Assembly (NCBI GenBank): GCA_035578155.1
Contig: JAPWDM010000006.1
Coordinates: forward strand, 10,742,305 to 10,806,304
Source of the DNA: Brachynemurus nebulosus
Taxonomy: Eukaryota > Arthropoda > Insecta > Neuroptera > Myrmeleontidae
Direction: 5' to 3'
Length of the DNA stretch: 64,000 nt
Under the pieces are notes generated by a model that was not told where the DNA came from, did not search any database, and worked only from the letters and a program-made list of their open reading frames with translations. Of this stretch, positions 2,991 through 58,347 are shown piece after piece. The stretch's first letter is position 1; every line of letters begins with the position of its first letter. Both the position numbers and the translations under genes were made by a program.

Positions 2991-3978
2991 CCTAAATAAA
3001 TTAATATTAGTTTTCAAATGATGCACCTCTTGCCCCCACCCCCTCCCCGACATTCGAACCGACATGTGCATATAAGTTTATAAATGTTCATATTTAAAAT
3101 CTAAAAGTTAATATTTAATTTAAAATTATACTATCCATTCCCCCTTCTAATTATTTATTTAACAAACGTAGTAATACACGGTTTAGTGCCTGTGCCGTGT
3201 TTACCGTCGGTTATACATATATCGGTACATATGTACATAAATCTAGTATTTCTATAGTTGGCCCACTGGCAACCAACACCACCCACTGTGGCCATAGTTC
3301 GTTTTATATGGTATTTATTTATTTATTTTTTTTTTTTAAATTACGTAATATTGTTTGATATTGCACTTTTTCTACCATTTGAATTAAATTAGAAATAAAT
3401 TCTAGGTACGCTTTTGTTCAAAAACATCGTGTACATTTTGACTCAATTAACGTCTTACCAATCGAACTATCATGCCGCTTGTAAGGTTACAAAAGTTTCT
3501 ATAATTGAATTACCTTAAAAATTTACTGATACAAGTTTATTATCATAAACCACTATGGTGGAAGTACGTAGCAATATAATTTACGACTGTCACTTTTTGG
3601 TAGCATGGATAGTATAGCTGTATGCACAAATAGGTGGCTGGCTCTTCAGTTTATAAACACAATTATGTCAATGGATATAACAAATTGTGTAAATTGCAAC
3701 AAAATGGCAAATGAATTGTACAAATTGTTCGAATTTTATACTTGAACAAAAAAATGTGTCAATAAAAATGTTGTTAGCAGAATAGTCAGTTATATAATAG
3801 TCGGTTAAGTGAATTGAGACAAATTTGTTATAAAATATATAAAATATTTTATTTATTTATTTATTTCGATAATAAAGTAACAAATTTTCAAGGCTATAAT
3901 AAATAATAACATTCGATTAAGGTGTTATTTACATCGTAAAAAATCGATTAAAAAATGTGTAACTTTCGAAAATGTCTC
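2991..3978. other. AT-rich intergenic DNA
   Basis: No supportable gene. Only short homopolymer runs, a small TTTA/ATTT-rich stretch near 3319-3337 and unremarkable AT-rich sequence are present. Confidence 0.6.
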
Positions 3979-4314: not shown

Positions 4315-4975
4315 CTACTTTTTGGTCTGATTACAATTAATTAAAAAAAAAAATAAAGAAGCAATTTTTTTGCCTTTATTTTAATCGGTTAATTTATCCT
4401 AATCAGACATAACTATGGAAACAAAAAATTGCAATATAAAATCAATGGACAATATTTGACAATTTGAAATGTCAAAAAGTTGCATAGGACTAAAAATCAA
4501 CAATTTTGGTTTGGGGCGATTTAGGGAAAAACTAATTATACAATATTGCATTGTAATCAAGGTTAGATACGTATGCAAAATTTAAAACCTCTACCTCAAT
4601 TAGAATCTGTCTAAACTTTGATTCCAAGATTTGATTTAAGCAGCATACTCACATAGCAAGTTAAATAAAAGCTTTTAAAAGAGTAACAATTTAAAAAAAA
4701 ATATTCGTGCAATGTTACCACTTGTTCTTAAACGTAATCTTGACCTTATTATTAATGAAATAGGTTTAGGTCCTTTAGGTTTTAACACTCCTTTAGATAT
4801 AAAAAAGCAACAAACACTGATTTTTAAATTTTTTTTTTTAGTTTACTCGAAATTTCGTCAAAGCTTTTGATTTCACACCATTCTTTGATGTGCTCTATGC
4901 TAACACCTCTCCCTCCCAGAAAAACATTGTTTTTTCTTTTTCAAAGCATCGATCCTAGCGCCACCAAAAAAGTCT
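4315..4975. other. AT-rich intergenic DNA
   Basis: No gene or clear repeat seen. Open frames are short and low in complexity. Confidence 0.6.
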
Positions 4976-5375
4976 TTTTTAGCGAATATTCGAATCGAAA
5001 ATTCAGCTATTACGGACACTGACATGACGCGACTTGAGTCCGGGACTATGACAGGATGATAATTCTCGAACGGAATATCCTACTTTTACGAAATGTTGGA
5101 AGTTCTAAGCCGTTGGACAAGTTTGTTAGCCGCAAACACGCCCGATGCCCGAAAAATGGTTTTTGGGGTATTTTTCGTGAAAAAAAATTTTTTTGCCAAA
5201 ATTTTTTACACCATTGTAAAGAGGAGAAAAAATCAAACAAAAAAGGCCTTTTTAACTATTTTTCTATGTTAACTAGTTTTCGAACAAAACAAATTTTTAT
5301 AAACGGAAATTCGGTATGTTATGCAGGATGCTGCGACAGCGGTATTTTTGACTTCAAATCCTGAATGACCTACTG
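4976..5375 (+). repeat. Interspersed repeat family A, copy 1
   Basis: This about 400-bp unit starts TAGCGAATATTCGAATCGA, continues through ACATGACGCGACTTGAGTC, and ends near ATGCAGGATGCTGCGACAG. The same order of segments recurs at 38335-38775 on the same strand. Its 3' part recurs in reverse at 60680-60800, and shorter fragments appear near 25875-25915. A 102-codon open frame (5056-5364) runs through it but is not preserved in the other copies, so I do not call a gene. The family type is unknown. Confidence 0.75.
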
Positions 5376-6320
5376 TTCAGTTTTTTGTCAACTGACACTC
5401 TTTATTCTCCTCAATGAGCAGTTTCACTGTATTTAAACTGCATTTTCACGTAACAATAACAAAAGACTTTTCACCCCCTGTGTCATTCCTCATTTTGGGA
5501 AAATCTTTCTCTTTATACCATCAAGATCAAAAGAAATGAAAATATATAATAATAATAATTTAACAAAAAAGCGAATATATTTCTCTTACGTTGCGATCAA
5601 AAGAAAAATTACATAATTTCTAGAAAAAAAAAGGCGGCGAATAAAATTCTTTTAAACTGTCATAAATAGATATAAAAAAGACAATGGCGCAACACTCTGG
5701 CATCTCAACGAAACAAAAAAAATACATAAAAATGTAATCACATTCAACACACTCAAAAAAAAAATTATCATTTTGAGCCGTTGATGAACGCTTCAAGTTG
5801 AGTGAATTCTATTAATTAACTACTCTATATATGGATAAAGGAATATAATTATACGACAGTAGCGTACCTAAAAAACACAAAAAAGGACTTGCAAATGATT
5901 TTTGATACGAAAGATGATGAAAATATTACACAAAGAAGCTCGCTGCAGCTTTTCAAAAAGCTCGAAATTCACAAACGTTTCTTCTTCTTTTTCTTTACAC
6001 AATGGCAATATTTATTTAAATGAAAAGTAACTTACTGCTCTAATGGCGGCACAATGATGTATTCTTTTATCATTATGTTCGGTTGGGTGTGAAAGGGGCG
6101 CGGTGGGGGGGGGGGGGGGTGAGGGAGGAGGTGAGTGTGAGTGGGGGTGTACGGAGTGGTGTGTGTTGGTCGGTTTTATTCTTTTCATTCAAATATCAAT
6201 GTTGTAATAATGTATTATGTGTAAAAATATGATACAAAAAAATATTAATATAAAAAAAAATAAACATTTATTTTATTCTTTTGTGTAAGTGCTTAAGTGA
6301 CTCAAAGGTCCTTATGAATA
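5376..6320. other. Intergenic DNA with a G-rich tract
   Basis: No gene seen. The notable part is about 6085-6170, a G/T-rich stretch with an uninterrupted run of about 15 G, followed by GAGGGAGGAGG and GTGGGGGTG. It could form a G-quadruplex on the plus strand. Confidence 0.6.
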
Positions 6321-7093
6321 TTAAGGGGAGATTCGCTTCGAAAAAAAGAAATCGATTTTATTTTCTTCATAATTATCTATGTTCCTTAAGGTGTTAGAAA
6401 TATTCTCCTGAAATTTTATTTTAAAAAAATGAAAAGTCAAAAAGTTATGGGCATTTTAGTGCATGCACTTTACTATAATTCAATTTAAATAAAAAACTTG
6501 AAATGCTTTTTTCTCGAAAGTACGTTTTTTGACATGGTTCCTCATAAATCAAAGTGTCTATTATTCCTCGATACCGTCATTTTGGCCGGAACTAGAATGT
6601 TTTGGTTCCGTAATATATTTTCAAAGAGCGGTGATTTGAAATTTATTTTCAAAATGTGATTTCACGCTGGTTTTTTATTTTTTTTTTCTTAGATCCTAGT
6701 TAGTGCCATTACTGAATATATGTATATTTTTAGAAAATTCTTGATTTTTTGATTTTGGTACACTGGGGATTTCAGAAAGCGAGGGACCATCAAGGCGGAA
6801 AAATCTCGTAGTGTCGACTTTAAAGCCACTTATACTCAGGTCATTTAGAATTTTTTTTGTAATCTCAAGACATGTAGAAACAATTCTGTATATTTAGTTT
6901 TTTAATAAAATATGTATTTGTATAAAAAAAAAAACCCGCAAAGAAATTTTAGTTTTAACAGCATTGTCATTTAATGTACGTCCAACACGAACTTGCCATT
7001 TCGTGAAGAATGCATAAGGGCTACAATAAAACAAATGGTCAATTTTTGATGTATTTTTTTTTCTTTTTTTTTTTGGGCAAATCTTCCCCTTAA
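6321..7093. mobile_element. TTAA-flanked piggyBac-like MITE
   Basis: The left end reads TTAAGGGGAGATTCGC at 6321 and the right end is the complement of TTAAGGGGAAGATTTGC, ending at 7093. A TTAA at both junctions and short TIRs are the hallmark of piggyBac-type insertion. The 773-bp interior has no transposase frame. A lone related end, TTAAGGGGAGAA, lies near 8179. Confidence 0.65.
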
Positions 7094-7214
7094 ACAATAT
7101 TCTGTTTTTCGTAATAAAGATTACCAAAAAATTTGTTTGTAACATTTTCGTCAAGCTTAAAAGCTTGTTGCATGGTGACGTAACAAGTGAAGTAAAACTA
7201 CTTTAGTAACATAG

Positions 7215-7643
7215 GAAGGGTACAGGGGAAAAACGATCAGAATCACTAAAAGTAAAAAATGCCAAAATCCATGCAGTTATATTGGCAGTATACAAAATAT
7301 TGACTCCGTGCTAACATTACACGTGAAAATCGAAACATAGTCCGTGATATGCAGGGGAAGAATCAAATTTTTTTGCTAAAAAATGCGCATATATTACATA
7401 ATTCGATGTCAAATTTCGCGAGAACGGCTAGCCGTCTATTTTCTGCTGGCATGGCGTTTTCTAGCTTACTATATTAGAAATAACCAACGAAAGTTTGAAC
7501 CAGATCCTATGCATGGTTTTCAGGCAAAAGACTTTTATGTTAAAAATGCGCCTATAATGCGTGATTCACACTTTAAAGTTTAAAAACGCTCCCCTGAAAA
7601 ATTTACTTTTTGTGACTCTGATCGTTTTTCCCCCGTACCCTTC
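7215..7643. mobile_element. MITE with about 42-bp TIRs
   Basis: The left end GAAGGGTACAGGGGAAAAAC and the right end, complement of GAAGGGTACGGGGGAAAAAC, are paired over about 42 bp. Total length is 429 bp. No coding capacity is credible, although a 66-codon frame runs inside. The target duplication is not clear, so the superfamily is not assigned. Confidence 0.8.
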
Positions 7644-8646
7644 ATATTCTACACATAATTAGCTTTGTAAAAATATAATTAAAAATTTTTTTGGCCGAGT
7701 GTTATGAAAACTTCATTTTAAAAATAATTTTTCTTTTTATTTTTCAAGAAGGTTTAGTAGGTTCTACCTTAGTTTAACCTAACCTAAACTAACCACCGTG
7801 TTTTCAAGTGAAATTTTGATTGTATAATTTTAACGTTCAAGTATTTTTAGATTTTCAATTTTGTAGGTATGTACTAGGTAGGAATATGAAATAAAAATTT
7901 AAATGCTTCTTTTTAAATTGTCGGAAATTAAATATTTAAATAGCTACTTTTCCGGCTTTCCATTTACAACCACTGTGCTTTGAGGTTACATTGTTGGGCA
8001 AACATGGGGTAAAAATGGCAACAATTTTTGTTGACACTATTTGCGTGATTGGATCACCAAATTGTGATGTTATCGTACATATTGTGGTCTGAACTGTGAA
8101 TGAATAAATGAATATAGTGAAAAAAATGTTGAAATTTTATTATTTTTTTTTGTAAAGAAAATATTATCTTTGTAGTGTTAAGGGGAGAAATAGTTTTAGA
8201 CAGGCAAAAACAAAGACAAATTTTGGGAATTTTTTTTAATAAAAGAAAAATTTATCTATATTTTTGAGGTTTGGGATTTTATTTACTATTATCTTAAAGC
8301 CTTATATTTTATTTTTTGTTTGTTTCAATATATATAAAAATGGTGGTTGCAGAAACTTTTTATTGGAGTGTGTGACTCCAAAAGTTTCTAAATGGTAGGC
8401 ACTCTAACAGCCAAAAATATTATTAGAAAAATTAAAAAGAATTCCATGTTGTTTACATCTAGGTAATATGTAGCACGTTGTTGAATCAAAAAATTCCAAA
8501 AGAGTGCAAACCTGGCGAATTTTCATGAAATTTTTGTCTATTTTTGCATTTAAAAAAATCCCTTTGTTCGGATATTGATATAAAAATTTGGTTCACCTAG
8601 AAGGTAATACAGAATACTAAAGAGTATATTTGGTCATACATAGAGA
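7644..8646. other. AT-rich intergenic DNA
   Basis: No gene seen. Near 7774-7786 there are only two CCTAA units, too few to count as insect telomeric repeat. Confidence 0.6.
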
Positions 8647-8954
8647 TATATACAGGGTGTAAAAAAAACAACTCTCGTGCTTAGGAGGGTTGACTCATTG
8701 CATCCTGTAGAAACTGAAACCACAGAAATTTTTTCGGAATTAACAGTTTGAGAAAATCTTAAATTGATTGGCTACATGGTGTTTCAAAATTTTTCTAAGT
8801 ACGGCTCTGTCTAAATTATGTATAAAGACCTTCTTAATATCAAAGGTAGAAAATAATTTTATTGACCACAATTCAATAAAATTTTGCAAACATGTAAAAG
8901 TTTTTTTTTTAGAGCAGAAAATTCATCTTACAAAGATGAGATGGTTAGAGCCGG

Positions 8955-9014
<60 letters not shown>

Positions 9015-9158
9015 TTTTAATCCAGGCCCCTTTTTTGGCCCATATTTTGTATCAAATTTTTTCTGTGGAAAAACAATTTTGTTAAAATATTAATTACATG
9101 GGTGAGATCTACCCACTGTTTTCGTAGCGAGATTTAAATACTTTACACCCTGTATATA
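8647..9158. mobile_element. ACAGGGTG-family TIR element with poly(A) tract
   Basis: The ends are TATATACAGGGTGTAAA (8647-8663) and its exact complement (9142-9158), giving 512 bp. The interior carries an uninterrupted run of 55 A at 8958-9012. There is no coding region. Two other elements in the window have ends built on the same ACAGGGTG core (25707-26584 and 62221-63210), and a solitary end lies at about 31980. Confidence 0.85.
8958..9012 (+). repeat. Poly(A) tract, 55 bases
   Basis: Uninterrupted A run in the middle of a TIR element. It may be the tail of an inserted retroposon, a slippage product or an assembly artefact. Confidence 0.95.
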
Positions 9159-10264
9159 CATATCATGCAGCCATACGAATAAGTCACAAATGCTATTACA
9201 CACTCTCGATCATCTCTTATGTTCGGAGATCAAACTATATATGAAGAATTTTGAGAATATTACTCTCTAAATTTTGGTGTGTATTCTTGACATGTTTTAA
9301 TAATATTCAACAAAATAAAAATGTTTCATTTTTTTTTCTCGTTCTAAACATATTCGCCCTTTTAAATGCAGAGAAAATAAAACGTATACTCGTGTGTGCG
9401 TATTTGAAATGGCTCCGGAAAATTAATTTTTCTTAGCGCATTGGCAATTTTGATGTTATCTTGAATCCCCCTATTCAGTGAATTATGAACTTTTTCTTAT
9501 TTTATTTTTTTACCTCCTTTTAGAGAATGTTCAAATAAACACTTAACAATTTTATGAATGTTAACTTCTGTGTGCATCTGACTGACTGTGGGTATTGCCC
9601 CTGCCGCCAAAACCTGCCCTTTCTTTGCCCTCGTAACTTTTTTCTAGTACTGTAAAGCCACGTGACCTTGTGCTTATTTACATAAATTTACAGATTACAT
9701 GTTCATTTCTGCACACAGAAATATAGGCGAGGTATGTATGTACTGTACGTACCAATTCTGGTGCCCACAGTACCTAACGGCGGCGGGGGCGGGGGAGCGG
9801 CACTTGAAAATTGAAAGGCACTGAGAGAAAAAAGGATGGAAGATGTATATATACAGTGCCAACGTAACAAAAGAAAGTAAGTAAATAAGGAAAGCAAAAA
9901 AAACGGAGGAAAAGGAATCGAGAAAAAATGATAATAACTTTTCTTGTATAATTAAAGTTAAGAATATATATAAACTGTTATTTGTAACTTAGGTACAGTC
10001 GATGTAAAAAATACGTAGAAATACAATCATTAAAAAAGGGTTTTACTTGTTTTTACAAGTGTGTGAAAATTCAAGGTTGACTTTGGGTCTCGTAAATATT
10101 TGTTTCCATGATCATTAGCAGCTCTTACGAAATTTCAAAATATTCTAGAAACACGAATAGTCGTAAAAAATGGGTGATACGTAAAATTGGTGACGTAAAT
10201 AATGTAACGAAACGTTTTTGTGTACTGACGACACAAAATTCTTTTGAATTCTCACATTAGATTA
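9159..10264. other. Intergenic DNA with a short GC-rich patch
   Basis: No gene seen. At 9777-9803 there is a GC-rich stretch (GGCGGCGGGGGCGGGGGAG) that stands out from the AT-rich surroundings. It matches GC-box-like sequence, but no adjoining reading frame supports a promoter. Confidence 0.5.
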
Positions 10265-50553: not shown

Positions 50554-50568
50554 CTACACGGAAAAAAA
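50554..50568 (+). repeat. Left terminal inverted repeat of the CACTA-like element
   Basis: CTACACGGAAAAAAA, followed by CGATTCAGTTCAATGAAATA. The two bases before it differ from the CACTA expected from the right end. Confidence 0.8.
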
Positions 50569-51090
50569 CGATTCAGTTCAATGAAATAAAACTGAATGTT
50601 TGAAAAGTATTATTTTGCCCAAATAAAATTTTGTCCAATGAATTATCATACAGTTTACCTAATCATTTCTGTTATTTCCAAAAATTAATTTTTTTGTTTG
50701 CATTTTTTAATAAGTTCCAAACAAACACATTATTTCAGTTTTAAAAACCATTTGTTTATTTAATTTTATTTGAATGAATTTATTTTAAAAGTTATGCAAA
50801 CGACATTTAATTTCAGTCCAGTATATTTTATTCCAGTTGAACACAACTTAAATATGTTCAACACATTTGAAACTGCGCATGTAGAATATGGTCATGTGAT
50901 ATACGATATACATATACATCATTATGTACTGTTTCGGCATTCGCGTCGGTTGTATTGAGTAGTTTAAAGTGATTTAACATTAAAAGAAATATTTAAACGT
51001 TCCGTTCTAAACATCCAAGTGACGCCATTGTATGTTTTTGTATTTTTTTCTATATATGTAATAGGTATATGTTTAACATTAGTTATTAAA
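50569..51090 (+). other. 5' subterminal and presumed leader region of gene 1
   Basis: It carries repeated TGAAATAAA, CAAATAAA and TTATTTCA-like words that also fill the 3' subterminal region, as expected for transposase-binding sequence. The frame of the gene 1 ATG is open back to a TAA at 50965-50967 and has no earlier ATG. Confidence 0.6.
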
Positions 51091-54056
51091 ATGGATGAGG
51101 AAACAAAGACCATTTTGAAAAATTGGGGTTTCGAAGAGTATATATCTGTTTTTATCGGTAAGTAAAAAAATAATTTTTTTAACAAATAGTAGGTACATAG
51201 TACATATACATATCTTTATCAGCCATATTGTTCTAAATAAAATCTGTTGTTTTGGGTTTTTCATTTATTTCAAAGATATTAGTAATTAGCACCTGCCCAA
51301 ACTTTTTTACATTTATACTAATTATGAATTTAATTTGATTAAATTAGTTTATTATAATACTAAATCATTTTTAGGTAACGAAATAGATATTACGTCATTA
51401 TTATTTTAACAAACAATACCTAAGTTATCAGCCGTGTTGTTGTAAATTAAAATGTATTGCTTTTGGTACATATTTTTTTCAAAGCAATAAATAATTAATA
51501 TGTGCCTAATCTTTATGCATTCATAATATGAATTTAATTTTATGAAATTAGTTTATTCAGTAGTATAATACTAAATTGTTTTTTGTTAGATAACGAGATA
51601 GATATTACGTCATTATTACATTTAACTGAAGACATGATAGCTGAAATATTTAAAAAAATAGGACCACGTAGCAAGTTTATTTCCAAATTAAATGCCTTTA
51701 AACGGGAAAAATTACCTGTAACTGTTCTGGTAAATTCAATTAATTTTAAATAATTGAAAGAAAAAAAATAGACGGTTTTTTTTTGTAATATAATATATAA
51801 TATATTATTTTAGCCAAATAAATATGAAACCAGTTCCAGTTGCTCGACTGTATCTACTAATTTTTCGGATTTAGAAAATTTTGATCCAGTAGAAGTATCA
51901 CCAGCAAAAATAAAAAGATATAACGCATGTTACGGAGACGAATTAATACAAAAACTAAATAATTGTCAACAGTTAGATTTTAATTTAAATGATATTTTAA
52001 ATAATACTTGTAACGGAAAAATTATTCTAGCAACTTATGCGGGAAACCGAATCTTAGATCGAAAATCACGAAATATTCTTTGTGATTTAATCATATCAGA
52101 AATATTTAAATCGACTACACGGTATTTTTCAAATTAAAGTTGAATATTAATTATATAGAATTAAAAAAAAATTTCGTTATTAATTTTTAGAAAATTGGAT
52201 GCAAGCCATTTTGAAAAATTGGCTCAAGATATTATTGATATTTTCCCAAATGAAGTTAAAGAAACTTACTATGTACCATCACTAAAAAAATCTTCTACTG
52301 GAAAATGTACGCCAGCGAAAGGCCGTTTAATAGATAAATATAGAAACAAATTACGTTATTTCAGAACTTCAGGTCTTTGGAGTCCTACACCGCCTAGTGA
52401 ATCCTTAAGTGTGGAGTCTGATGAAGGTAAAATCATACTTTTTTCGTTTTTACAATCTAACAAATATTTTTTGTTTATTTTTCACTTAATTTTAGGTGAA
52501 TCAAAAAATCTTGTAAATTTTAAAACATGGTTGGAATATAATACTGAACCATTTGATCAAGTTATTGATTTTTGGAAAAAAACTTTTCCGTTGAGGAAAC
52601 ATGAAAGTAATCAATTATTAACCGTAAATGAGTTTATTTCACAATGGCCTATTCTAAAATGTTCTTTTGGATTTACTTTGGTAAAAAATTAAAAATATAT
52701 TTCATATTTGGAAACTGTAATGTAAAAAACGTTTCAGTTTTGTTTTTTTCTTAAAATTTTACAGATTGAAAAAGATTTTGCAGAACTTTTCCCAGAAAAG
52801 GAGTTATGCCTATTATCAAATTTTTCCAGTTTTATTGAGTCTTTGTTAAAATTAAAAAGGAAGTATTTACCAGATGAGGCTCGGTGTACACTCAAGGAAT
52901 TAGACAACATTAACTTATCTGAAAGTAAGAAACATTTCTTTTTATTTACTATTTTTCTGTTGTTTTTAGGGTTCCGTAAAAAAATAAAAAACGGAACCCT
53001 TAGAGTGAGACTTCAATGTCCGTCCGTATAGAAATCGTTTGTCTACATCTATTACAGGTAAATTAATTTCAGAAATCCTTTTATTTTTATTTGAAAAGGG
53101 GTTAGAAATGGACGGTTGAAATTTGTAAGTGCGAAACCAAGGTCAAGTGGGATATCATTTGAAAGGGCTTTGTTTACACATTTCAAAACTACTTTTTTTA
53201 AAAGTTTAAATTACGTAGGTTCTTGAGTTATGGCCAAAAATGTGCGAAAAAATACCGTCCCCCTTTCTTATCTTCGAAGTTTTCGAACCGAAAACTTTGA
53301 AAAAATTCATACAAATAGGAAATTCCATATATATTACAGGAAAAGTAAAACGAACTTCGTCCAAATGTCTATAGTTTTTTTTTTAGATAAAATGGAAAAA
53401 TTTTGGCTGGAGTTCCAAAAACCATATAAATATCTCCGATTGAGCTGAAATTTTATTTACATAACCTTTTTGGTTTAGGAAGTTACCCTTTAGGAAGGAA
53501 GATATTATACGAAACCCTCCGTGCGTGAGTCAGACTCGTACTTAACTTATTTTAAATACGTATATTTTCTTTTTCAGATAGCAAAACAACATTAAAAATA
53601 TCATTATTACCATATCTAATACAATCCAGAGCAAGAATATTCAACAAAAGAAAGCAGTGGAAGCCAACAATACCCGAAATTTTAGAAGGACTACTGTTAC
53701 ATTCAACAACGCCATCTGAAATTGACGTCACTATAGAAAATCGTCGCACCCGTATGTTAAAACATGGACTTACAGTACAACCATTTATACTAGTGGTAGG
53801 ACCAAATTTAAAAAATATTACCGAAACATACGTAATTATAGACAATATTAAGTATCAAATAAATTCATGTTTAAAGGCTTTTGACATTTGTTTTAAAGCT
53901 TATCATGTTTTAAACGCACGGTATAGTTCTGAATGTAGTCACATTTTAACTTTAATACAACGTTATATATATAACATTGAAACAAAATGGGATTCCGAAA
54001 TTCCATCAATTTCTGAACTTATTTCCGATTTAAAGAATAACGAAAATAGACAGTGA
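51091..54056 (+). CDS. SAM-domain protein, SAMD3-like, seven exons
   Basis: The exons I infer are 51091-51157, 51590-51729, 51814-52121, 52191-52426, 52496-52680, 52765-52924 and 53578-54056. They sum to 1,575 nt (524 aa plus stop), every junction is GT-AG and the frame is kept. The ATG is the first in frame after an upstream stop and has a good context (AAAATGG). Residues 5-65 form a SAM domain (W12, then NEIDITSLLHLTEDMI and GPRSKF), a helical protein-interaction module. The middle is basic. The C-terminus (QPFILVVG, then a VIIDNIKYQIN block and YSSECSHILTLIQRYIY) resembles the C-terminal part of SAMD3-like proteins, which are also about 520 aa; that comparison is from memory. Its place beside a transposase in one TIR element suggests an accessory role in transposition, such as DNA binding or assembly, which is inference. 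The upstream exon-2 decoy and the weak donor near the stop are odd features. Confidence 0.82.
51216..51624 (+). repeat. Tandem duplication of intron 1 end plus start of exon 2
   Basis: Copy 1 (51216-51407) and copy 2 (51425-51624) share TTATCAGCC.T.TTGTT, a run ending in TTTAG or GTTAG, and TAACGA.ATAGATATTACG. Copy 2 is the real exon 2 acceptor (AG at 51588-51589). Copy 1 has its own acceptor (AG at 51373-51374) and keeps the frame for 12 codons, then stops with TAA at 51408-51410. It is a decoy exon that would truncate the protein inside the SAM domain. Confidence 0.85.
52967..53550 (+). repeat. GGGTTCC-family repeat inside gene 1 intron 6
   Basis: It opens AGGGTTCCGTAAAAAAATAA followed by AAACGGAACCCTTAG, a hairpin with 8-bp GGTTCCGT / ACGGAACC arms, then GTCCGTCCGT. 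It closes with ACGAAACCCTCCGTGCGTGA, then GTCAGACTCGTACTT. It accounts for most of the 653-bp intron; the other five introns are 69 to 432 bp. A 72-codon frame inside is noncoding. Confidence 0.75.
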
Positions 54057-54841
54057 AAGTCCATTTGCATTTGTTTATTACAATATTTAAAATTTTGATA
54101 TTTAAAATTTCAAAGTTACTTTTGAAATACATTTATGATTATTTTTGTAATGTAAATACATTTGTTTACTGTCAATTTGAAGAATTATTTATATATCCAA
54201 AATTGAAAATTCATTTCCGAAATATTTTTATATTTGTTTTTACACTTATTGAATTAAATATGAAATACTATTATTCAGAATGGAATGTTTAGAATGTAAT
54301 ATTTCTTTTAATGATATGCAAATATTTTTTTCTCATTTGAAGTTTTCACATCAATATTCTTCAAATTTTATATATTTGTTTTTACACTTATTGAATTAAA
54401 TATCAAATACTATAATTCAGAATAGAATGTTTAGAATGTAATATTTCTTTTAATGATACGCAAATATTTTTTTCTCATTTGAAGTTTTCACATCAATATT
54501 CTTCAAATTTTATATATCTGTTTTTACTTATTGAATTAAATATCAAATACTATTACTCAGAATGGAATGTTTAGAATGTAATATTTATTTTAATGATATG
54601 CAAATATTTTTCTCATTTGAAGTTTTCACATCAATATTCTTCAAATTTTATATATTTGTTTTTACACTTATTGAATTAAATATCAAATACTATTATTCAG
54701 AATAGAATGTTAAGAATGTAATATTTCTTTTAATGATACGCAAATATTTTTTTCTCATTTGAAGTTTTCACATCAATATTCTTCAAATTTTAGATATTTG
54801 TTTTTACTTATTGAATTAAATATCAAATACTATTATTCAGA
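54053..54841 (+). other. Spacer between gene 1 and gene 2; possible alternative intron
   Basis: 54052 is the second base of the last gene 1 codon, followed by GTGAAAGT, a weak donor lacking the usual G before it. An acceptor TATTATTCAG ends at 54840. Joining 54052 to 54841 puts the gene 2 ATG in frame directly after the gene 1 C-terminus, removing the stop. The resulting open frame is 1,334 codons. Whether it is spliced is unknown. Confidence 0.5.
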
Positions 54842-54930
54842 ATGGAATGTTTAGAATGTAATATTTCTTTTAATGATATGCAAATATTTTTTTCTCATTT
54901 GAAGTTTTCACATCAATATTCTTCAAATTT
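54229..54930 (+). repeat. Five-copy 140-bp tandem repeat of the gene 2 start
   Basis: Equivalent bases of the start codon fall at 54280, 54422, 54562, 54702 and 54842, i.e. spacings of 142, 140, 140 and 140 bp. Each unit holds the TATT/TATA-TTCAG acceptor, the start-codon region and about 30 codons of gene 2 covering the first zinc finger, then ends before the second finger. Copies 1, 3 and 5 have ATG; copies 2 and 4 have ATA. Copies 1-4 run into stops after the AAATTTTATATAT or AAATTTTAGATAT junction. Copy 5 is the real gene start. Confidence 0.93.
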
Positions 54931-57274
54931 TCAATGCAGCATATGTTTACGTTTGTATAAAGATATATGGAATTTCAAAAAACATTTAATTTCTAAGCAT
55001 TCAAATGAAACAACAAATATAGAAGATTGTTCTTTAGTTACTAAAAAATATGTAGATTTAAGCAATAAAACTGAAAAATTTAATAAAAATAAATTATCTG
55101 AAACTTTTGAAAGTTTTCCATTGAATCCGGATATAACATTCAAACAATCAATACAGAAATTTATTTCAAAACTATATAACAATAATACTGTTACACGATC
55201 AGTGATACAAGATATAATTGAATTCGTAAGTGAAATATTTAACTGTAATGTTGTGACACAGCTGAATACTAAAATTAACTTATTAAATTCTGTTAGAGGA
55301 CAGACTGATTCTTTTGAATCCATATTGGCTGATATTAAAAATATTATTTCTGAACTACAATCTCCTTTTAGTGGTTTTGAATCAGAATATTTAAGACTTC
55401 AATATTTTGAACGTTCAAATTTTTTAATTAAACCAGTTCCGTTTGTTATTGGAACGTCTGAATTTCAAAAAAGTAATCAAGAGGTTTCATCTATGCAAAT
55501 AAAGGATAATTTAGGACAATTTGTTTCTATGAAAGAAGTGCTTAAGTGTTTTTTAGAGTTACCGTTTGTATTTCAGTCAATAATTAGTTATATGGAAGAT
55601 TGTTACGATAGTGAAAACGTACAAAGTGTTTTTAATGGAATAGTATGGAATGAATTAAAATGTAATTTTTATGATAAAACTGTTTTGCCGTTATATATTT
55701 TCTTTGATGATTTTCAAATTGGAAATGTATTGGGTAGCCACGCATCTATATACAAGTTAGGTGCAATATATTTTTCATTAGCTTGTATTCCACCAAAGTA
55801 TGCTTCACGTTTAGAAAATATATTTCTGGCACAGTTGTTTTTTTCACAAGATCGAGTAAATTTCGGCAATAGAGCAACATTTTCTAAATTAATTAACGAA
55901 TGTGTAGAACTATATGAAAAGGGAATTGAAATTATTGTTAATAATAAAAAATATCAAATATTTTTCAATGTAATACTTATATTAGGAGATAATTTAGGAT
56001 TAAATTCAATATTAGGTTACAGTGAAAATTTTTCGGGTTCTTATTTTTGTCGTACATGTAAAGCTGATAAATCTCTTACACAGAGTCAAGTGACAGAAGA
56101 TAAGTCACTATTAAGAAATAATATAACTTACAATACAGACGTTAATTGTAAAACAAACGGAATTAAAGAAGAATCAATTTGGAATCAATTGTCTCATTTT
56201 CATGTAACTAAAAATATATCATGTGATGTAATGCATGATTTATTGGAAGGAGTTTGTAGATATGATATGGCAAAGATTTTAAAATATATAATAAAAGATA
56301 AAAAATTTGTTACATTAAAACATTTAAATAATAAACTCAAATTTTTTAATCATTCTGAGAATTGTAATGTTGGAAATAAAATTCCATTGTTGTCTAAAGA
56401 ACATATAAATAATGAGTATGTCATTATGTCAGCATCAGAAATGCTTGCATTTGTTACTTATTTTGGTATTATTGCTGGAGATTTTGTACCTATTGACGAT
56501 AATGTGTGGGAACTTTACTTGATATTAAAAGAAATTGTTGCTATTTCATTTAGTAATACATTACATAAAGGTGCCATTAAATTATTGGCAACTTTAATAC
56601 AAGAACATCATGTACTGTATTTAAAATTATTTAACGAAAAACTCAAACCAAAACATCACATAATAATTCATTATCCTGAAATTTTATATCGTTTTGGACC
56701 TTTAGTAAATTTTTCATGTATGCGGTACGAAGCAAAACATAAGGAATTCAAAACTAATGCTAATGTAATAGCATGTCGAAAAAATATACCATACACCTTA
56801 GCTCTCAAACATCAACTAAAATTTTGTTATCGTCTCTCTAGTAATTTGGGATTTTCAGATAAAATAGATTACAGTACAGATGTGACGTTTATAAAATCTT
56901 TAGAGGATTATATTTTCTTTTATAAAAAATTACCTTTAAATTTCCAGGAAAATTGTCTAAGTTATAATCGATATAAATTGAATGGTATGTTATACAAACC
57001 TGGTTATATTTTATTAATTAGTTTTATAGATGAAGATTATCCTTTATTTGGTTTAATAAAATATATATTAAGTAGTAAAAATAAAGAAATATATTTTGTT
57101 TTAAAAATACTAAAAACTATTGGTTATGATTTACACAGACAAGCATATGAGGTAGTCATAAATCATGAAAATGTAGAATGGGATATTAGATGTGTAAAAG
57201 AACTGTACTCTTTATTTCCACATAATTATCATACCATTGGTAATGGCAAGAATTTGATTTCTTTACGCATTTGA
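54842..57274 (+). CDS. CACTA/Tnp2-like transposase with N-terminal C2H2 fingers
   Basis: 810 aa, uninterrupted. Residues 3-24 and 32-53 are two C2H2 fingers (CLEC...HLKFSH and CSIC...HLISKH), a likely DNA-binding region. The core follows the order known from plant CACTA Tnp2 proteins: an acidic pair in YIFFDDFQIGN (D289/D290), then ILGDNLGL (D383) followed by CRTC (403-406), then CDVMHDLLEGV (462-471, compare the plant DVMHIEKNV motif), then KPKHHIIIHYP and a late RYEAKHKEF block with E630. These suggest an RNase H-like DDE/D nuclease; D289 or D290, D383 and E630 are my candidates for the catalytic residues. It acts presumably in the nucleus on the element's TIRs. The start is the ATG at 54842, which also lies one base inside a good acceptor, so it may be initiator or internal. 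No stop or frameshift is seen, so the copy may be active or preserved by selection. Confidence 0.8.
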   Translation: MECLECNISFNDMQIFFSHLKFSHQYSSNFQCSICLRLYKDIWNFKKHLISKHSNETTNIEDCSLVTKKYVDLSNKTEKFNKNKLSETFESFPLNPDITFKQSIQKFISKLYNNNTVTRSVIQDIIEFVSEIFNCNVVTQLNTKINLLNSVRGQTDSFESILADIKNIISELQSPFSGFESEYLRLQYFERSNFLIKPVPFVIGTSEFQKSNQEVSSMQIKDNLGQFVSMKEVLKCFLELPFVFQSIISYMEDCYDSENVQSVFNGIVWNELKCNFYDKTVLPLYIFFDDFQIGNVLGSHASIYKLGAIYFSLACIPPKYASRLENIFLAQLFFSQDRVNFGNRATFSKLINECVELYEKGIEIIVNNKKYQIFFNVILILGDNLGLNSILGYSENFSGSYFCRTCKADKSLTQSQVTEDKSLLRNNITYNTDVNCKTNGIKEESIWNQLSHFHVTKNISCDVMHDLLEGVCRYDMAKILKYIIKDKKFVTLKHLNNKLKFFNHSENCNVGNKIPLLSKEHINNEYVIMSASEMLAFVTYFGIIAGDFVPIDDNVWELYLILKEIVAISFSNTLHKGAIKLLATLIQEHHVLYLKLFNEKLKPKHHIIIHYPEILYRFGPLVNFSCMRYEAKHKEFKTNANVIACRKNIPYTLALKHQLKFCYRLSSNLGFSDKIDYSTDVTFIKSLEDYIFFYKKLPLNFQENCLSYNRYKLNGMLYKPGYILLISFIDEDYPLFGLIKYILSSKNKEIYFVLKILKTIGYDLHRQAYEVVINHENVEWDIRCVKELYSLFPHNYHTIGNGKNLISLRI

Positions 57275-57317
57275 TTTTATTAATTGGTACTTTTGTGTAA
57301 TTTTGTTATTATGTAAT

Positions 57318-57685
57318 GGGCGATTCTCGCGTGACGCACAGGACATTTTTACAACAAAAACATTTAAAAAAAAATGCTATTAATAATAAACAAAACAAAA
57401 TGTTTATAATACGCAGAAAATGAAGTAAACTTTTTTGAGCATATTCTAATTTTTATCTGAAATTCAGTACTCAAGATATAAGGCATAAACTCACGTGACG
57501 CACGGGACATCGTACGAAACGAAGTTTATGTCTTATATTTGGAGTACTGCATTTCAGATATAAATTAAAATATGTTCAAAAAATTTTCATCCAGTTGCCT
57601 CGTGTTATAAACTTTTTGTTTTGTTTGTTATTAATTTAATTAAAAAAAATTTTTTTGTTGCAAAAATGTCACGCGAGAATCGCCC
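57318..57685. mobile_element. Palindromic MITE in the 3' region of the CACTA-like element
   Basis: The ends are GGGCGATTCTCGCGTGACG (57318) and the complement of GGGCGATTCTCGCGTGACA (ending 57685), flanked by TAAT (57314-57317 and 57686-57689). A second inner pair of arms (AGTACTCAAGATATAAG with AAACT.ACGTGACGCACG, and its complement) makes the whole 368 bp largely palindromic. It lies only 43 bp after the gene 2 stop and pushes any downstream poly(A) signal about 370 bp away. Confidence 0.88.
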
Positions 57686-57755
57686 TAATATTATTTGATT
57701 GTCATATTATTAATAATAATGTAGTACATCTTACAAACAAAATACAATATTAACA

Positions 57756-57761
57756 AATAAA
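57756..57761 (+). terminator. Candidate poly(A) signal
   Basis: AATAAA, about 480 bases after the gene 2 stop and about 70 after the inserted MITE. Other AATAAA words lie inside the MITE and in the 3' repeats, so the true site is uncertain. Confidence 0.35.
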
Positions 57762-57826
57762 CGCGTTTTATTTATTGTATCCAATACATGTTTATTTATG
57801 TTTCAGATAAATAAGAAATACAACTT

Positions 57827-57996
57827 AATTCAAATAAAAATAAAATACAGTGGATTAACAATAATTGTTAACTGAAATAAATTATTTATTTCAGTCAAAT
57901 AAGAAAATGAATTCACTTAAATAAAAATAAAATACAGTGGATTAACAATAATTGTTAATTGAAATAAATTATTTATTTCATTCAAATAAGAAAATG
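57827..57996 (+). repeat. Two-copy 83-87-bp subterminal repeat
   Basis: Both units contain AATAAAAATAAAATACAGTG followed by GATTAACAATAATTGTTAA and a self-complementary TGAAATAAATTATTTATTTCA-type core (quoted without its last base). Starts are at 57827 and 57910, with a third partial at 57997. Position inside the right end of the CACTA-like element suggests transposase-binding sites. Confidence 0.8.
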
Positions 57997-58332
57997 AATT
58001 CACCTATATAATAAAATGTTTAGTTCAAATAAAATCCTTATTTCATTGAAACAAAATATTATTTCAACAGATCGTTATTCAAATTCATATAAGCAACATC
58101 TTTGTTTTGTGCAAACTATAGAATTATTTCATTTAAATATGTTAGTAATTGTCTGAATTATACTTTTTATTTGATTAAATTTTTTCTTAATTCTAATGAA
58201 CTGATTTTCTGTTTGAAACTGAGAATAATTTCAAACAAAAAAATTAATTGGTTGAAATAAAAAGCTTATTTGACGGTATGCAAACAAAAATTTTATTTGA
58301 CTGGAATAAAATTTATTTGATGGGAATAATTC

Positions 58333-58347
58333 TTTTTTTCCGTGTAG
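58333..58347 (-). repeat. Right terminal inverted repeat of the CACTA-like element
   Basis: The complement reads CTACACGGAAAAAAA. With the two adjoining bases it is CACTACACGG, the canonical CACTA start. Confidence 0.82.

What the first reader, a model, noticed from the sequence alone, without database searches (positions are those of the whole stretch)
50554..58347. Two-gene CACTA/EnSpm-like transposon pairing a SAM-domain protein with a zinc-finger Tnp2-like transposase
Seen: matched TIRs, two long intact genes in the same orientation, intron-rich gene 1 and single-exon gene 2. Known: plant CACTA elements also carry two genes (TnpA-like binding protein and TnpD/Tnp2-like transposase). Inference: the SAMD3-like protein is the animal counterpart of the accessory protein, and animal SAMD3-type genes may derive from such accessory genes. 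That would be a notable evolutionary link.
Basis: partly seen in the sequence, partly recalled or inferred. Interest (0 to 1): 0.9.

Follow-up and report, generated by a model that had tools for sequence, protein, structure and literature searches.

The report
Young two-gene RAG1-like jumping gene
A jumping gene in what is likely an insect genome, with at least 50 nearly identical unbroken copies of its enzyme gene, pairs an enzyme predicted to fold like RAG1 (the enzyme that rearranges antibody genes) with a second, SAM-domain protein that likely helps it move, and matches to both proteins also occur joined in predicted beetle, butterfly and ant proteins.

The parts
50555..50556 (.). left copy of the target dinucleotide TA
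   Evidence: same dinucleotide on both sides in 37 of 37 copies with both ends read; single TA in an empty site
50557..58344 (+). whole element, 7,788 bp, CACGG...CCGTG
   Evidence: 20 of 20 other copies fetched whole begin and end here
50557..50568 (+). left terminal inverted repeat CACGGAAAAAAA
50557..50857 (.). left subterminal region, 3 of the 19 T(G/C)AAATAA motifs
51091..51157 (+). gene 1 exon 1 (start of the SAM domain)
51590..51729 (+). gene 1 exon 2 (rest of the SAM domain; homologous to the SAM part fused in P0038)
51814..52121 (+). gene 1 exon 3
52191..52426 (+). gene 1 exon 4
52496..52680 (+). gene 1 exon 5
52765..52924 (+). gene 1 exon 6
53578..54056 (+). gene 1 exon 7 with the stop codon
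54224..54931 (+). five 140-bp tandem units; the last holds the acceptor-like TTCAG/A, the ATG and the first zinc finger of gene 2
   Evidence: one unit fewer in copy L019
54842..57274 (+). gene 2: transposase, 810 aa (two C2H2 fingers, predicted RAG1-like core at 100-669, predicted BAH-like domain at about 673-807)
57801..58344 (.). right subterminal region, 16 of the 19 T(G/C)AAATAA motifs, part of them inside an 87-bp tandem duplication
58333..58344 (-). right terminal inverted repeat
58345..58346 (.). right copy of the target dinucleotide TA

Best explanation
This is a 7,788-bp two-gene DNA transposon, with at least 50 unbroken, nearly identical copies of its transposase gene in the host genome, that likely moves by cut-and-paste: its zinc-finger transposase, predicted to fold like RAG1, would cut at the CACGG ends and join them to TA (or CA) dinucleotides, and the SAM-domain protein of its first gene likely assembles with it on the ends. 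Shown: the boundaries, the 2-bp target duplication, the near-identity of the copies, both reading frames intact in 21 of 21 whole copies, invariant DDE and C(2)C/H(3)H residues, and co-occurrence of the two genes in a second family of the same genome and in single predicted proteins of other insects. Predicted: the RAG1-like fold and the BAH-like domain. Inferred: catalysis by D289, D383 and E630, binding to the repeated T(G/C)AAATAA motifs near the ends, SAM-driven oligomerisation, and the need for gene 1 in transposition.
Against: No transcript, protein or transposition was observed. 114 of 120 listed transposase relatives show no gene-1 segment at E <= 1; separate genes would not show it, but their contigs could not be read. 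P0083, P0103, P0085 and P0061 are automatic gene models, P0103 clearly chimeric, and P0061 holds only 46 matched gene-1 residues. The SAM end of gene 1 was not detected at L069, whose transposase frame is broken. Pfam sees SAM in 1 of 17 gene-1 relatives, several of which are truncated. The end motif was picked from the data; the fair control is the commonest 8-mer, 10 observed against at most 7 in 500 shuffles. Two related non-autonomous elements with the same CACGG ends show no matching 2-bp duplication.
Confidence: 0.8

Rival explanations
1. The SAM protein is a passenger or regulator carried by the element (for example acting against host silencing) and takes no part in the cut-and-paste complex.
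For: No function was tested; SAM domains serve many roles (recalled). 114 of 120 listed transposase relatives show no gene-1 segment in the same protein.
Against: Repeated co-occurrence with diverged transposases, intact in 21 of 21 copies, and a SAM part joined in frame to the zinc-finger transposase in P0038.
Confidence: 0.25
2. The two genes are one transcription unit: SAM exons are also spliced to the transposase exon, so that the SAM domain works as part of the transposase itself.
For: Exons 1-3 join in frame to an acceptor-like site before gene 2 (one chance in three). P0038 and P0039 have such a joined protein. Alternative splicing is described for maize Spm and SmTRC1 (PMC1636069, parts 1-3 read).
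Against: No RNA evidence; gene 2 has its own ATG after the fifth tandem unit; gene 1 continues through seven exons with its own stop. Compatible with the best explanation rather than excluded by it.
Confidence: 0.35
3. Gene 1 is a host gene and the repeat ends flank it by accident.
For: The 8-mer CTACACGG also occurs once inside gene 1 (52115), so short matches do arise by chance.
Against: 20 of 20 other copies hold the whole unit at other sites with 2-bp duplications.
Confidence: 0.01

Closest known systems
EnSpm/CACTA elements (maize Spm with TnpA and TnpD), as summarised in PMC1636069 (parts 1-3 of 6 read)
   Same: Two proteins, one with the transposase; repeated motifs near the ends; CAC at the ends; weak Transposase_21 signal in relatives
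   Different: CACGG instead of CACTA; 2-bp duplication; accessory protein with a SAM domain; zinc fingers and BAH-like domain on the transposase
Animal TRC elements (SmTRC1; PMC1636069)
   Same: Animal, CACTA-related, 2-bp target duplication, tandem repeats inside the element
   Different: TRC ends start with CCC; no SAM protein described in the parts read
ESTA, fungal EnSpm-like transposons with TA duplications (PMC12730594, passages)
   Same: CMCT-type residues, RAG1 similarity, TA duplication
   Different: Fungal, found with TET/JBP genes; here TA 34 and CA 3; sequences could not be compared
Transib, ProtoRAG and RAG1
   Different: 5-bp duplication in ProtoRAG against 2 bp here; that the partner is RAG2-like there is recalled; here it is a SAM protein

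Membership tests
[quoted passage not shown]
   D289, D383, C403xxC406, H606xxxH610, E630 in 66 of 66 aligned proteins
[quoted passage not shown] as defined in PMC12730594) | CA...TG termini (most cases) | tested here: met
   CACGG...CCGTG in 37 of 37 copies with both ends read
[quoted passage not shown] as defined in PMC12730594) | Target duplication of 2 to 5 bp | tested here: met
   2 bp
EnSpm/CACTA, canonical | Ends begin with CACTA | tested here: not met
   CACGG
EnSpm/CACTA, canonical | 3-bp target duplication (the value PMC12730594 gives as consistent with EnSpm) | tested here: not met
   3-bp match in 0 of 21 copies, 2-bp in 21 of 21
EnSpm/CACTA, canonical | Transposase_21 domain | tested here: inconclusive
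   no hit in the window protein; 10 of 51 relatives at E <= 1, best 0.0022
EnSpm/CACTA, canonical | Repeated short motifs near the ends (recalled) | tested here: met
   commonest 8-mer 10 times, at most 7 in 500 shuffles
Animal TRC elements (SmTRC1) | CCC at the ends | tested here: not met
   feature from PMC1636069
ESTA | TA target duplication | tested here: inconclusive
   TA in 34 and CA in 3 of 37
ESTA | Transposase groups with ESTA in a tree | not testable with these tools
   no ESTA sequence at hand
Transib / ProtoRAG | RAG1-like transposase core | tested here: met
Transib / ProtoRAG | 5-bp target duplication | tested here: not met
   5-bp match at the element ends in 0 of 21
SAMD3 | N-terminal SAM domain | tested here: met
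   SAM_2 23 bits, cut-off 20.5
SAMD3 | Homology to SAMD3 outside the SAM domain | not testable with these tools
   no SAMD3 sequence reached

The most novel reading that the evidence does not exclude
Insects harbour an old, still moving lineage of RAG1-type transposons whose second subunit is a SAM-domain polymer: the SAM protein coats the repeated motifs near the ends and builds the paired complex, a partner invented independently of RAG2 and in some lineages fused into the transposase itself.
Probability: 0.35. Interest if true: 0.8.

Novelty: new variant of a known kind. Interest (0 to 1): 0.62.

Why it matters
It offers a nearly uniform, apparently competent animal transposon whose enzyme is predicted to share the RAG1 scaffold but has a different partner protein and a 2-bp target. 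That makes two open questions directly testable: what an accessory subunit does for RAG1-type transposases, and what sets the length of the target duplication in this clade. It could also become an insect gene-transfer tool. Five searches of the held paper library for a SAM protein in such elements gave no paper or only papers unrelated by title and start of abstract; Repbase Reports and most subscription journals are not in that library.

Tried and rejected
Chance terminal repeat: rejected. Boundary at CTACACGG as first read: rejected; three copies with CA on both sides show that TA is target sequence. Domesticated single-copy locus: rejected.

Searches that led nowhere: transposase in viral contigs and in prokaryote contigs, gene 1 in viral contigs: no relative confirmed. 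NCBIfam: none. BAH and transposase papers: 4 listed, none on this by title (listing only). Foldseek on the gene-1-family model: no match at E <= 0.001; in the second look only the SAM part stands out. A 14-bp inverted repeat around the second family (L069, 2352 and 7817) was not checked in other copies. The second family's copy number, and a genome search with the gene-1 relative P0126, did not complete.

Full report
WHAT IS THERE. The only exact matches of CTACACGGAAAAAAA in the window are the two ends, in inverted orientation, and the terminal 350 bp resemble each other beyond shuffles (score 40; shuffles 17.4 +/- 2.8, largest 29 of 300). Gene 1 reads as seven exons with GT/AG borders, 51091-54056, 524 aa. 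Gene 2 is a single exon, 54842-57274, 810 aa. They lie on the same strand.

COPIES. A search of the window's own genome (960 Mb, 138 contigs, unnamed) with the left end scored 40 of 237 candidates, all 99-100% identical, the window's copy included. I fetched 20 of the 39 others whole: 20 of 20 span the element end to end at 99.2-100% identity; one, L019, lacks a single ~142-bp tandem unit. Fifteen of the 20 differ from the 21-copy consensus by at most one substitution (the window's copy by 14, the two most different by 20); 36 of 7,805 alignment columns hold substitutions. Gene 1 (frame and all splice borders) and gene 2 are intact in 21 of 21. A protein search scored 56 of 811 candidates: 50 are full length, ~100% identical and stop-free (window included), three are partial, two are 95-96% identical with stops, one is a 40% relative with one stop. 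Such uniformity means very recent spread (inference).

TARGET SITE. In the 21 whole copies the two bases outside CACGG...CCGTG are TA on both sides, and no 3- to 5-bp match is shared there. For the other 19 copies I fetched only the ends; both ends were seen in 16, of which 13 have TA and 3 have CA on both sides; in 3 of 19 the right end was not in the fetched stretch. So 37 of 37 have equal dinucleotides. The joined flanks of copy L020 match, over 513 columns at 97%, an uninterrupted stretch beside copy L009 with a single TA. Hence a 2-bp duplication at TA, sometimes CA.

RELATIVES. The transposase search found 192 proteins at E <= 0.001, 120 of them listed, among 7,995 scored candidates. Those with a species name in the list are insects: beetles, ants and wasps, moths and butterflies, aphids. 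The host is therefore likely an insect; it was not identified.

WHY THE TWO GENES BELONG TOGETHER. (1) 21 of 21 whole copies carry both intact. (2) The 40% relative in the same genome, L069, has gene-1-family matches at 3091-3627 and 4394-4846 (best E 1.6e-24) and then gene-2 matches at 5283-7666 on the same strand; its frames are broken and no SAM end was detected. (3) A gene-1 profile matches 6 of 120 listed transposase relatives at E <= 1: P0083 and P0103 (beetle Holotrichia), P0085 (butterfly Brenthis), P0061 (ant Vollenhovia, 46 residues only), P0038 and P0039 (jgi contigs); P0049, close to the last two, matched only at BLAST E 0.011. These are predicted proteins, P0103 a chimeric model. 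In P0038 a homolog of SAM exon 2 runs directly into the zinc fingers. (4) The carriers fall on separate branches of a quick tree of 66 proteins; several deep nodes are weakly supported. The simplest reading is an old pairing, sometimes fused.

HOW IT LIKELY WORKS. Inferred: the transposase pairs the CACGG ends, cuts them by DDE chemistry as RAG1 and Transib do, and joins them with a 2-bp stagger at TA or CA. T(G/C)AAATAA occurs 19 times in 845 bp of end sequence (3 left, 16 right, part of them inside a tandem duplication); shuffles give 0.86 on average, at most 4 in 500, and 58 other 845-bp pieces of the window at most 1. As the motif was picked from the data, the fair control is the commonest 8-mer: 10 observed, at most 7 in 500 shuffles. 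These are candidate sites for the zinc fingers or gene 1. The SAM protein probably oligomerises on the ends or on the transposase; in maize Spm, TNPD interacts with TNPA and stabilises its DNA binding (PMC1636069, parts 1-3 of 6 read). Splicing of exons 1-3 to gene 2 in frame is possible but unproven.

PLACE AMONG KNOWN KINDS. [quoted passage not shown] PMC12730594, passages). It is not a canonical CACTA (ends, duplication length), not Transib or ProtoRAG (duplication length), and differs from animal TRC elements (ends CCC). ESTA shares TA duplications, but its sequences could not be compared. A RAG1-like fold is thus expected for the clade; the SAM partner, its repeated linkage, the in-frame SAM fusion and the BAH-like domain are what my paper searches did not show (seen as listings except the papers named here). 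The SAMD3 origin idea stays untested.

Noticed in passing
window 54224-54931: Five 140-bp tandem units, each repeating the start of gene 2 (acceptor-like site, start region, first zinc finger); copy L019 has one unit less.
   Followed up: partly
window 52925-53577: Intron 6 holds what looks like an inserted repeat with ACGGAACCC-type ends; since all 20 fetched copies match across it, it travels with the element.
   Followed up: no
L029 8812 to 9818 with L020 right flank; L030 (reverse) 8694 to 9882 with L009 right flank: Two non-autonomous relatives (about 1.5 and 2.3 kb) with CACGG/CCGTG ends, about 74% (left) and 86% (right) like ours; our element has inserted into both, and neither shows a matching 2-bp duplication.
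   Followed up: partly
G000 C2:16140474, C1:18088993, C109:638128: Three copies sit at CA instead of TA, with CA on both sides.
   Followed up: yes
protein P0135 (Phaedon cochleariae): A gene-1 relative joined to a Myb/SANT-like DNA-binding domain in one predicted protein.
   Followed up: no
gene-1 relatives in A5: 3 of 17 match Pfam DUF4769 at up to E 0.00047, a possible name for part of gene 1.
   Followed up: no
L069 2352-7830: A 14-bp inverted repeat GAGGCTACTCAGAG encloses the second family's two genes and may be its ends.
   Followed up: partly
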